A stretch of 44,576 nucleotides of DNA from contig JACOYH010000002.1 of assembly GCA_016181965.1 (NCBI GenBank), positions 1-44,576 on the forward strand. The letters are read 5' to 3'. Under the pieces are notes generated by a model, which made no database searches, was not told where the DNA came from, and was given only the letters and a program-made list of their open reading frames with translations. Positions 18,334-21,899 of this stretch are shown piece after piece. The stretch comes from Candidatus Nealsoniibacteriota bacterium. Its GTDB lineage: Bacteria > Patescibacteriota > Minisyncoccia > Minisyncoccales > MHMH01. Within the stretch, counting starts at the first letter, position 1. Every line of letters starts with the position of its first letter. The translations under genes were made by a program, and so were the position numbers.

Positions 18334-18681
18334 CTACTGAGAGATTTTCTCCATTATTTTTTTAAAAATGTCGGGGTGGTTTTCGGCCAGTTCGGCTAAA
18401 ATTTTTCTGTCCAGTTCAATATTGTTTTGCTTCAGAGCGTGAATCAGCCGACTGTAAGAAACGCCATTTGCCCGGGAAGCGGCGTTAATTTTCACTTGCC
18501 AGAGTTGGCGCTTTTCTCGCTTTTTTGCTTTTCTGTCACGGTAAGCGTATTCCCAAGCATGCGCAAGGGCATCCTTGGCCAGCTTAAATTTGCTTTTTCT
18601 GCCCCAGCGAAAACCTTTGGCATGTTTTAATAAATGCTTTTTGTGTTTTTTGGCAGCTTTTCCTCGTTTAATTCTAACCAT
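18334..18681 (-). CDS. rplT: 50S ribosomal protein L20
   Basis: MVRIKRGKAAKKHKKHLLKHAKGFRWGRKSKFKLAKDALAHAWEYAYRDRKAKKREKRQLWQVKINAA. Confidence 0.95.
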   Translation of the reverse strand: MVRIKRGKAAKKHKKHLLKHAKGFRWGRKSKFKLAKDALAHAWEYAYRDRKAKKREKRQLWQVKINAASRANGVSYSRLIHALKQNNIELDRKILAELAENHPDIFKKIMEKISQ

Positions 18682-18866: not shown

Positions 18867-19370
18867 TTATGATTTGGAGATAATCATTGAAAAGCCCCTC
18901 GGCTCCCTCTTGATTTCTCTTTCAATTTTGAGGGGAATAATGCCCTGCAGAACTTCCAAAAATTTATAAACTTTTTCTTTAGCAAAGTCGCCAAGCGCTT
19001 TCTGTCTTCCCACTAGGCGCATTTCAATTCTGATCTTGTCTCCTTCTCTCAAAAATTTCTCCGCTTGCTTCGCCCTGACCTCCATGTCGTGTTGAGATAT
19101 ATTGAAGCTCAACCTAATGCCCTTCATTTCACCGCCCTTGGGCTTCATGCTCTTTTCTTTCTTTTGCTGCTGATACACATATTTGCCATAGTCCATTATT
19201 TTACAGACCGGCGGTTCAACCCTTTCTGTCACCTGAATTAAATCTAAATTACGCTCTTTTGCTTCGCGGAGCGCATTTTCCAACGGCATCACGCCCAATT
19301 GCTGGCCGGCTTCTCCTATAACCCTAACTTCCCGCGCCCTTATTTGATTGTTGATTAATGGTTTATTCAA
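18867..19370 (-). CDS. infC: Translation initiation factor IF-3, TTG start
   Basis: NKPLINNQIRAREVRVIGEAGQQLGVMPLENAL...; start codon is TTG. Confidence 0.94.
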   Translation of the reverse strand: MNKPLINNQIRAREVRVIGEAGQQLGVMPLENALREAKERNLDLIQVTERVEPPVCKIMDYGKYVYQQQKKEKSMKPKGGEMKGIRLSFNISQHDMEVRAKQAEKFLREGDKIRIEMRLVGRQKALGDFAKEKVYKFLEVLQGIIPLKIEREIKREPRGFSMIISKS

Positions 19371-19385
19371 AAATTTTGTCCGAGG

Positions 19386-19715
19386 TGGAGATGGGGAGTT
19401 ATGAGCTCCCGTCTGAAAGATATTTTAAAATAATTCTACAGGCATAGTTGGTTTTTGCCTTCAAAGTCCCGGATATGAAACAAACAAAATTCCGAGACCT
19501 CTAGCCCCGCTTGTTTCACCGGATAGTTGGAGCAGAAAATCCGGCAATCTCGATGATATAACACCCGAATTGCCTATCGAGAGTCAGCAACTAAGATGGC
19601 TTTAAGCTACAGCTAAAGCTGGTTGTTTGAATAAGTTGGCGCTTATTTGTGTTGCCTTACGGCAAGCGGGCCTGCCTTATTTTAAAACTTCTTCCATCGA
19701 ATCGGTCTCATCCCC
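19386..19715 (-). ncRNA. ssrA: tmRNA (transfer-messenger RNA)
   Basis: Ends pair GGGGATG/CATCTCC; T-arm-like GGGAG-CTCATAA-CTCCC; internal tag frame GCAACACAAATAAGC...GCTTAA (19655-19602) encodes ATQISANLFKQPALAVA*; adjacent to smpB. Confidence 0.9.
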
Positions 19716-20157
19716 GTAATTTCAACTCTCTTTCGATTTCTTTCTCAATGTCTCTTTTTTTAAGGAGTTCTTTTTTGCCGGCCCTCTTTCTTCCCCTAGC
19801 CAGCCCGAACTCAAGTTTTATTTTGCCTCCCTTAGTATACATCCTTAATGGTATCAAAGTCAAGCCCTTTTGCTCGGATTTGCCGATTAAATACTTGATT
19901 TCCTTCTTATTCAAAAGCAGCTTTCGCAGACGGCTTGGGTCATAGTCCTTGGGCATATTCTGTGGCTGATACGGGGAAACATGCGCGTTAAGCAAATACG
20001 GCTCTTCGTCCTTGAAGACCACATAGGAGCCAGTCAGTCCTATTCTGCCCAGCTTGATGGATTTTACTTCGTAGCCGGCCAAAACTATCCCGGCTTCAAA
20101 TTTCTCCAGGATTTCGTAATCAAAATAAGCCTTTCTATTTTCAGCCAATGGTTTCAT
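19708..20157 (-). CDS. smpB: SsrA-binding protein SmpB
   Basis: MKPLAENRKAYFDYEILEKFEAGIVLAGYEVKSIKLGRIGLTGSYV...LARGRKRAGKKELLKKRDIEKEI. Confidence 0.95.
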   Translation of the reverse strand: MKPLAENRKAYFDYEILEKFEAGIVLAGYEVKSIKLGRIGLTGSYVVFKDEEPYLLNAHVSPYQPQNMPKDYDPSRLRKLLLNKKEIKYLIGKSEQKGLTLIPLRMYTKGGKIKLEFGLARGRKRAGKKELLKKRDIEKEIERELKLRG

Positions 20158-20195
20158 TCTTTAATTTTAGCGGAAATTACGCTAAACTGGAAGTG

Positions 20196-21899
20196 ATGAT
20201 CAGGGATGAACTAATACAATTAGTGGAAAGGGCGGCGAGGCAGGCCCGCCTGCCGGCTCGTCTTGACTCGGCGAGGCAGGCCCGCCTGCCGGCTCGTCTT
20301 GACTCGGCGAGGCAGGCCCGCCTGCCGGCGAGGCAGGCGAGTTTTGGCGCGCGCGAGGAAATTAGAATTGACCGGCCTGCCGAAGAAAGCCATGGCGATT
20401 ATTCAACCAACTTTGCTTTGCAAATCGCCAAGGCGGTCAAAATATCTCCTCAACAAATTGCGGCGCATCTTCAATCGCATATTTTGAGTTTGCGTCCTGA
20501 TCTTTTTGAGAAAATTGAAATAGTTGAGCCGGGCTTCATCAATTTTTTTATTTCCGCAAAATATCTGCAAAATCAGGTCGCAACCATTCTAGAGAAAAAA
20601 GAAAAATTTGGACACTTGAATTTAGGGAGAAGCAAAAAAACCAACGTTGAATTTATTTCGGCAAACCCCACTGGCCCCCTGCATGTTGGCAACGGACGGA
20701 GCGCGTTCAGCGGCGATGTTTTAGCAAACGTATTAGCCGCGGCCGGATATAAAGTTGTCAGGGAGTATTTTATTAACGACGCCAAAAACAGCAAACAAAT
20801 CATTGAGTTGGGCAAAACGGCCTTGGGCAAGGGAGAAGTTTATTTAAGCGAATATTTAAAACTTAAAATTCAATCCGTCCGCTGGCGGACAAAGTTGACG
20901 GAGGGGGATGCCGGATTTTTGCTGGCCAAAGAGGTTCAGGCCGATACCAAGGCCTTACTGGAGAAAAAGCTGAAAATAAAATTTGATAAATGGATTTCCG
21001 AGGAAAAAGACCTTTATCAAAAAAATAAAGTCAAAAAGACCCTTGAATGGCTCAAGCAAAAAAATCTGGTTTATCAAAAAGAGGGCGCATGGTGGGTTAA
21101 AAGCTCGCAGTTTGGCGACGATAAGGATTGGGTTGTTATTAGGGAAAGCGGCGAACCAACCTATCTGCTTTCAGACATTGCTTACCATAAAGATAAAATT
21201 GATCGCGGTTTTGAAATGATTATCGATATTTGGGGAGCCGACCATCAGGCCCATGTGCAAAAAATGAAAGCCGCAGTCGGTATGCTTGGTTACCAAGGTC
21301 AACTGGATATTTTAGTTCTTCAGCTGGTCACCCTAAAAGGCGGGGAGAAGCTTTCTAAAAGAAAAGGCCAAGTAATCATGCTGGAGGATTTAATTGACGA
21401 AATCGGCTTGGATGCGGCCCGATTTTTTTATCTTCAAAAATCCTTAGACACTCATATGGAAATCGACATCGGGCTTGCTAAGGAGCAATCGCAGAAAAAC
21501 CCTGTTTATTATGTTCAGTACGCTCACGCCCGCATTTGCAGTATTTTGGCCAAGGCCAACGCTAAGAATGCTAAGCCGCTTCACGATTTGCTAAACCATC
21601 CGAGCGAGCTGAGATTGATTAAGCAGCTGCTTAAATTGCCCGAGGTCATTGAAGACACGGCCAACGACTATCAATTACAACGTCTGCCCTATTACGCAGT
21701 TGAATTAGCTATGGTTTTTCATCAATTTTACCAGGACTGCCAGGTAATTTCCGAAGACAAAAAACTTACCCAAGCCCGCTTGTTCTTGGTTTTATCCGCT
21801 AAAACCGCATTGAAAAATACTCTCTCTCTGATGGGCGTCTCTGCCCCGCGTCTCTGCCCCGGAAAAAATGTAGCCGCCACTTTGATTAAAAAAACATAA
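20196..21899 (+). CDS. argS: Arginyl-tRNA synthetase with in-frame N-terminal repeats and altered C-terminus
   Basis: ESHGDYSTNFALQIAK, FISANPTGPLHVGNGRSAFSGD, IDIWGADHQAHVQKMKAA, LSKRKGQVIMLEDLIDEIGLDAARFF. Confidence 0.93.
   Translation: MIRDELIQLVERAARQARLPARLDSARQARLPARLDSARQARLPARQASFGAREEIRIDRPAEESHGDYSTNFALQIAKAVKISPQQIAAHLQSHILSLRPDLFEKIEIVEPGFINFFISAKYLQNQVATILEKKEKFGHLNLGRSKKTNVEFISANPTGPLHVGNGRSAFSGDVLANVLAAAGYKVVREYFINDAKNSKQIIELGKTALGKGEVYLSEYLKLKIQSVRWRTKLTEGDAGFLLAKEVQADTKALLEKKLKIKFDKWISEEKDLYQKNKVKKTLEWLKQKNLVYQKEGAWWVKSSQFGDDKDWVVIRESGEPTYLLSDIAYHKDKIDRGFEMIIDIWGADHQAHVQKMKAAVGMLGYQGQLDILVLQLVTLKGGEKLSKRKGQVIMLEDLIDEIGLDAARFFYLQKSLDTHMEIDIGLAKEQSQKNPVYYVQYAHARICSILAKANAKNAKPLHDLLNHPSELRLIKQLLKLPEVIEDTANDYQLQRLPYYAVELAMVFHQFYQDCQVISEDKKLTQARLFLVLSAKTALKNTLSLMGVSAPRLCPGKNVAATLIKKT
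20234..20341 (+). repeat. 36-bp in-frame tandem repeat, about 2.6 units plus a degenerate tail
   Basis: GGCGAGGCAGGCCCGCCTGCCGGCTCGTCTTGACTC repeated; encodes ARQARLPARLDS. Confidence 0.95.
21835..21860 (+). repeat. 13-bp tandem duplication at the argS 3' end
   Basis: GCGTCTCTGCCCC x2. Confidence 0.95.

What the first reader, a model, noticed from the sequence alone, without database searches (positions are those of the whole stretch)
19708..19715. smpB stop codon lies inside the 5' end of tmRNA: possible trans-translation feedback loop
Seen: smpB ends ...TTA CGG GGA TGA and the predicted mature tmRNA 5' end GGGGATG (pairing with CATCTCC) starts at the second base of CGG. RNase P maturation of a co-transcript would remove the smpB stop codon and leave a non-stop smpB mRNA. 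Established: non-stop mRNAs are substrates of tmRNA-SmpB. Inference: tmRNA maturation could tag and destroy SmpB, coupling the two partners.
Basis: partly seen in the sequence, partly recalled or inferred. Interest (0 to 1): 0.75.

Follow-up and report, generated by a model that had tools for sequence, protein, structure and literature searches.

The report
smpB stop codon inside tmRNA gene
In this tiny-genome bacterium the gene for the ribosome-rescue protein SmpB borrows its stop signal from the first bases of the neighbouring rescue-RNA gene, so making the mature RNA should cut the stop signal off the protein's message; the same overlap recurs in about a third of its order, and the RNA gene appears to have its own promoter hidden inside the protein gene.

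Summary
Rfam places tmRNA at 19715..19383 (-) and smpB ends at 19708, so smpB's UGA is tmRNA nt 6-8. RNase P cleavage before 19715 would leave smpB mRNA without a stop codon. The idea is published: smpB-ssrA overlap with exactly this feedback reasoning is described for Carsonella and reported 'nowhere else' (PMC4131195). New here: 32 of 91 surveyed genomes of this Patescibacteria order overlap, 26 by exactly 8 nt, in 19 families; outside the order only 3 of 56 do.

Two results qualify the feedback reading. First, a sigma-70-type promoter (TTGACT-18-TATACT, 19863..19834) lies inside smpB and is conserved at synonymous positions: Leu99 is TTG in 98% of Leu cases against 25% background. It tracks with ssrA lying downstream on the same strand (34/43 versus 0/12), so ssrA probably need not come from smpB transcripts. 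Second, tRNAs of this order lend stop codons too (6/70), and the overlap turns over rapidly (at least 21 changes), as compaction predicts. The non-stop consequence is geometrically hard to avoid; a selected feedback loop is unproven.

The parts
19708..20157 (-). smpB, 149 aa, C-terminus RELKLRG*
19383..19715 (-). ssrA (tmRNA), complete match to RF00023
19708..19715 (-). 8-nt overlap GGGGATGA; smpB UGA = tmRNA nt 6-8; predicted RNase P cut between 19716 and 19715
   Evidence: cleavage inferred
19858..19863 (-). -35 element TTGACT of the promoter embedded in smpB (codons Leu99-Thr100)
19834..19839 (-). -10 element TATACT of the embedded promoter (codons Tyr107-Thr108); transcription start inferred near 19827, about 112 nt before the tmRNA 5' end
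   Evidence: start site inferred
19602..19640 (-). tmRNA tag reading frame ANLFKQPALAVA*
18867..19370 (-). infC, 12 nt downstream of the tmRNA 3' end; a homologue lies on the same strand in the flank of 89 of 91 genomes
   Evidence: gene name from own knowledge of the sequence and the infC-rpmI-rplT order
18334..18681 (-). rplT, further down the same strand
   Evidence: name from own knowledge
20148..21899 (+). argS-like ORF, divergent from smpB; true start probably inside the ORF
   Evidence: name from own knowledge

Best explanation
smpB and ssrA are packed so tightly that smpB has no stop codon of its own: it reads 8 nt into ssrA and ends on the UGA at tmRNA nt 6-8 (shown). ssrA most likely has its own sigma-70-type promoter embedded in the smpB coding sequence, TTGACT-18-TATACT at codons 99-108 (inferred from strong synonymous-site conservation and from association with ssrA lying downstream). 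Having the promoter inside smpB removes the need for an intergenic region and lets the two genes collide. A transcript from the smpB promoter must run into ssrA to reach its stop codon, so when ssrA is completed and RNase P matures it, the smpB part loses its stop codon and its last one and two-thirds sense codons (inferred). smpB can then be translated and terminated normally only before cleavage; ribosomes caught afterwards become substrates of tmRNA-SmpB itself, a built-in self-limiting effect (inferred). The evidence favours compaction and tolerance as the cause of the arrangement, with any feedback a by-product that may or may not matter quantitatively.
For: Coordinates. Recurrence: 32/91 overlaps in the order, 26 at exactly -8, 19 families, 8 of 9 genomes in the window's own family; smpB lies upstream of ssrA on the same strand in all 91. 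Outside the order 3/56. Promoter: 10/12 match in the window; Leu99 is TTG in 85 of 87 Leu cases versus 25% background, Thr108 is ACT in 99% versus 48%, the two columns of highest synonymous information among 95; codon 108 ends in T in 88 of 91 even where the amino acid changes. Outside the order the site scores at least 9/12 in 34/43 genomes with ssrA downstream within 400 nt versus 0/12 where it is not, p=7e-7. Named genomes: those inspected with the TTGAC site and enough downstream sequence have a same-strand tmRNA downstream; most of those without it have none nearby or one on the other strand. Several lineages keep the hexamer in another register, TTGACA-16-gTA TAC Tct. Compaction: CDSs ending inside 6 of 70 tRNAs of the order; at least 21 state changes on the tree. 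RNase P RNA and ClpP present.
Against: No transcript data: the embedded promoter's start site, co-transcription and the mature tmRNA 5' end are all unmeasured. A few genomes with ssrA close downstream lack the promoter at this site (G086, G096, G076, G016, G062). smpB-ssrA overlaps are more frequent than tRNA overlaps among close neighbours (32/78 versus 6/38, p=0.007), which could mean selection beyond compaction, although the adjacency is ancestral and the tRNA control relies on ORF length for most neighbours. Many branches of the tree are weakly supported.
Confidence: 0.72

Rival explanations
1. Selected autoregulation: tmRNA maturation makes smpB mRNA non-stop as a regulatory device, so SmpB is tagged and degraded when tmRNA is plentiful, holding the two partners in balance.
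For: Geometry; overlap in 8 of 9 family members and 32/91 of the order; enriched over tRNA overlaps (p=0.007); no short ArfB-like hit in this genome, so non-stop smpB would depend on tmRNA-SmpB. [quoted passage not shown]
Against: At least 21 changes of state on the tree (shuffles average 26), fitted gain rate 0.9 and loss rate 1.5 per substitution per site, i.e. rapid turnover. Sister genomes lose it (G006, +5) or change its length (G008, -29). Stop borrowing also occurs at tRNA genes. An embedded promoter can supply tmRNA without smpB.
Confidence: 0.22
2. Pure by-product with no effect: co-transcripts are rare, or ribosomes have cleared smpB before the tRNA-like domain, about 330 nt further on, is finished and cut; the overlap is neutral.
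For: Rapid turnover; general compaction and tRNA overlaps; embedded promoter.
Against: Later ribosomes on the same mRNA would still meet the cut end; the overlap is more frequent than for tRNAs.
Confidence: 0.45
3. The TTGACT-18-TATACT conservation is not a promoter but codon bias, RNA structure or protein constraint.
For: The hexamers fall on conserved residues (LTLIPLRMYT), so part of the match is forced by the protein (synonymous shuffles still average 8.6 of 12 for the best site in the region).
Against: TTG 98% against 25%; third base T of codon 108 kept across amino-acid changes; association with ssrA position; 12/12 consensus in six genomes; alternative register in other lineages.
Confidence: 0.08

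Closest known systems
smpB-ssrA overlap of Carsonella ruddii (Mao et al. 2009 as cited in Hudson, Lau and Williams 2014, PMC4131195)
   [quoted passage not shown] the same feedback reasoning was published.
   [quoted passage not shown] here SmpB matches the full-length SmpB models, the overlap is mostly exactly 8 nt using the tmRNA's own UGA, and it recurs in 19 families of one order.
[quoted passage not shown] RNase III site as cited in PMC4131195)
   Same: A ribosome-rescue gene whose mRNA is made non-stop and thereby comes under control of tmRNA.
   Different: There RNase III cleavage does it; here it would be RNase P maturing tmRNA itself. Regulation is shown for arfA, not here.
CDS-tRNA gene overlaps (Table 4 of PMC4131195)
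   Same: An upstream CDS ends inside a t(m)RNA gene on the same strand.
   Different: 250 of 115,660 t(m)RNA genes in that survey; about 9% of sampled tRNAs and 35% of ssrA genes in this order.

Membership tests
tmRNA (RF00023) | full-length covariance-model match with paired tRNA-like ends | tested here: met
   107.3 bits, model 1-374
tmRNA (RF00023) | tag reading frame ending in small hydrophobic residues | tested here: met
   ANLFKQPALAVA*, core conserved in the family
SmpB (NF003843 / TIGR00086) | score above curated cut-off over the full model | tested here: met
   173.4 vs 130 bits; 158.9 vs 119.1 bits
Carsonella-type smpB-ssrA overlap | smpB stop codon lies inside mature tmRNA | tested here: met
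Carsonella-type smpB-ssrA overlap | co-transcript is cut and smpB becomes non-stop | not testable with these tools
   needs RNA data; predicted, not shown, in Carsonella too
Sigma-70-type promoter inside smpB | -35 and -10 hexamers with 16-18 nt spacing, conserved beyond protein need | tested here: met
Sigma-70-type promoter inside smpB | drives transcription of ssrA | not testable with these tools
   association with ssrA downstream only
Autoregulatory non-stop gene (arfA-like) | tagging and degradation of the product by tmRNA in vivo | not testable with these tools
   none available

The most novel reading that the evidence does not exclude
Across an order of Patescibacteria, t(m)RNA genes serve as stop-codon donors (UGA at tmRNA 6-8, UAG at tRNA 8-10), so RNA maturation routinely makes upstream mRNAs non-stop; smpB-ssrA is the case where this closes an autoregulatory loop, with a promoter embedded in smpB setting the excess of tmRNA over SmpB.
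Probability: 0.22. Interest if true: 0.82.

Novelty: new variant of a known kind. Interest (0 to 1): 0.6.

Why it matters
The published survey concluded that the smpB-ssrA overlap exists only in half of the Carsonella strains; here it is common in an order of Patescibacteria with SmpB and tmRNA that look intact, which makes the feedback idea testable outside a degenerating symbiont. The promoter embedded in smpB, conserved mostly where ssrA follows, is a prediction about tmRNA expression across much of the phylum and explains how the genes can overlap. If RNA maturation regularly removes stop codons in these compact genomes, trans-translation would carry a built-in load.

Tried and rejected
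ARAGORN does not see this tmRNA; Rfam does. I asked whether family f1 keeps the overlap longer than order-wide turnover predicts: it spans 3.05 of 45.6 units of tree length with one outright loss, in line with at least 21 changes over the whole tree, so there is no evidence of special retention. Folding the leader plus tmRNA gave z=-1.69, not informative. A terminator-like hairpin at 19509-19493 lies within tmRNA and was not taken as a terminator. Library searches for a described promoter inside smpB, or for Patescibacteria overlaps, found none; the library lacks most subscription papers. My regular-expression tmRNA finder for named genomes missed many, so Rfam was used for 40 of them.

Full report
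Observation. On the minus strand smpB runs 20157..19708 (149 aa) and tmRNA 19715..19383 (RF00023, full length, 107.3 bits). The shared bases 19715..19708 read GGGGATGA. smpB's final codons CGG GGA TGA end on tmRNA nt 6-8, and the tmRNA 5' G is the second base of CGG. The tmRNA looks functional: G3-U pair, a tag ANLFKQPALAVA whose core is shared by the family, and a full-length model match. ARAGORN missed it. UGA is a genuine stop here.

Prior knowledge. Hudson, Lau and Williams (PMC4131195) described smpB-ssrA overlap in Carsonella, with the comment that tmRNA maturation would make smpB mRNA a non-stop substrate of its own product. They stated that it was found nowhere else, and only in half of the Carsonella strains. 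The 2025 tmRNA database paper shows no passage on such overlaps.

Survey. tmRNA was searched in the window's genome and 99 relatives; 90 loci plus the window were read. smpB lies upstream of ssrA on the same strand in all 91. In 32 the genes overlap: in 26 by exactly 8 nt, always through a TGA at tmRNA nt 6-8, in one by 1 nt and in five by 17-30 nt. The 32 belong to 19 families of the order. In the window's family it is 8 of 9. In a phylum-wide sample outside the order, 56 of 108 loci held smpB near ssrA and only 3 overlapped, one of them at -8 in the same class. Named examples with the -8 overlap are Nealsonbacteria RIFCSPLOWO2_01_FULL_43_32 (L125) and Paceibacterota STD2_131 (L119); L158 ends the same way, with its tmRNA confirmed by Rfam.

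Is it selected? On a tree of SmpB, InfC and RplT the overlap state changes at least 21 times, against a mean of 26 for shuffled labels (4 of 300 shuffles as low). Fitted gain and loss rates are 0.9 and 1.5 per substitution per site. Sister genomes G006 and G008 show the overlap lost or lengthened. As a control, all 40 tRNAs found in this genome and 30 from other members of the order were checked. Six have an upstream reading frame ending inside the tRNA, five of them on the TAG at tRNA nt 8-10; two of the three in this genome have Pfam support (cytidylyltransferase-like, GIY-YIG). None of 30 tRNAs outside the order did, but few there had a close upstream gene. Among close neighbours (60 nt or less, or overlapping), ssrA overlaps are more frequent than tRNA overlaps (32/78 versus 6/38, p=0.007). 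The picture is compaction with stop-codon borrowing; an additional preference at ssrA is possible but not shown.

A promoter inside smpB. The consensus scan gave TTGACT-18-TATACT at 19863..19834. Nearly all genomes of the order carry a good match at the same site. Codon choice there is extreme: Leu99 is TTG in 85 of 87 against 25% background, Thr108 is ACT in 99% against 48%; these are the two columns of highest synonymous information in the gene. Codon 108 ends in T in 88 of 91, also where Thr is replaced by Ser, Asp, Asn or Ala. Outside the order the site scores at least 9 of 12 in 34 of 43 genomes with ssrA downstream within 400 nt and in 0 of 12 where ssrA is far or on the other strand (p=7e-7). 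Six genomes have a perfect 12 of 12. In named genomes, three Yanofskybacteria without the site have tmRNA on the opposite strand; two Staskawiczbacteria lack the site although ssrA follows. Several lineages carry TTGACA-16-TATACT in a different codon register. This is strong comparative evidence, not proof, that ssrA has its own promoter within smpB, with a leader of about 112 nt to be removed by RNase P.

Mechanism. Shown: the overlap, its recurrence, the conserved site, and the presence of RNase P RNA and ClpP. No short ArfB-like hit was found in this genome, only two release factors of about 350 aa, while G002-G004 have short hits; ArfA was not tested. Inferred: any smpB transcript that reaches its stop codon has entered ssrA, so if ssrA is completed it is a pre-tmRNA, and cleavage before 19715 leaves ...TTA C. 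A terminating ribosome also covers the 5' acceptor strand and should delay maturation. Ribosomes arriving after the cut would stall without a full codon in the A site and be rescued by tmRNA-SmpB, which tags SmpB. Whether enough ribosomes are caught to matter is unknown; the embedded promoter means tmRNA supply need not depend on this path.

Verdict. Observation confirmed; interpretation partly supported. This is a new variant of a known arrangement, with an unexpected embedded promoter and a wider habit of borrowing stop codons from t(m)RNA genes.

Noticed in passing
L282, L293, L301 (own genome); L313, L329, L337 (order): Upstream reading frames end inside tRNA genes, five of six on the TAG at tRNA nt 8-10; RNase P maturation would make these mRNAs non-stop too.
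   Followed up: partly
window 20233-20329: A 36-bp unit repeated 2.7 times without a mismatch at the start of the argS-like ORF; its core GGCAGGCCCGCCTGCC is found exactly only here in this genome and in none of nine relatives, but a one-mismatch copy lies inside the tmRNA at 19661-19676.
   Followed up: partly
G002, G003, G004 versus G000: Some family members have a short RF-1-domain hit (about 72-116 aa, possibly ArfB); the window's genome shows only two long release factors.
   Followed up: no
window 19371-19386: ssrA does not encode a full CCA end (ACCT), and infC begins 12 nt after the tmRNA; an infC homologue lies on the same strand in 89 of 91 genomes, suggesting tmRNA is cut out of a longer operon.
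   Followed up: partly
L137, L139, L146, L148-L151, L156: Embedded smpB promoter kept in another codon register with 16-nt spacing.
   Followed up: partly
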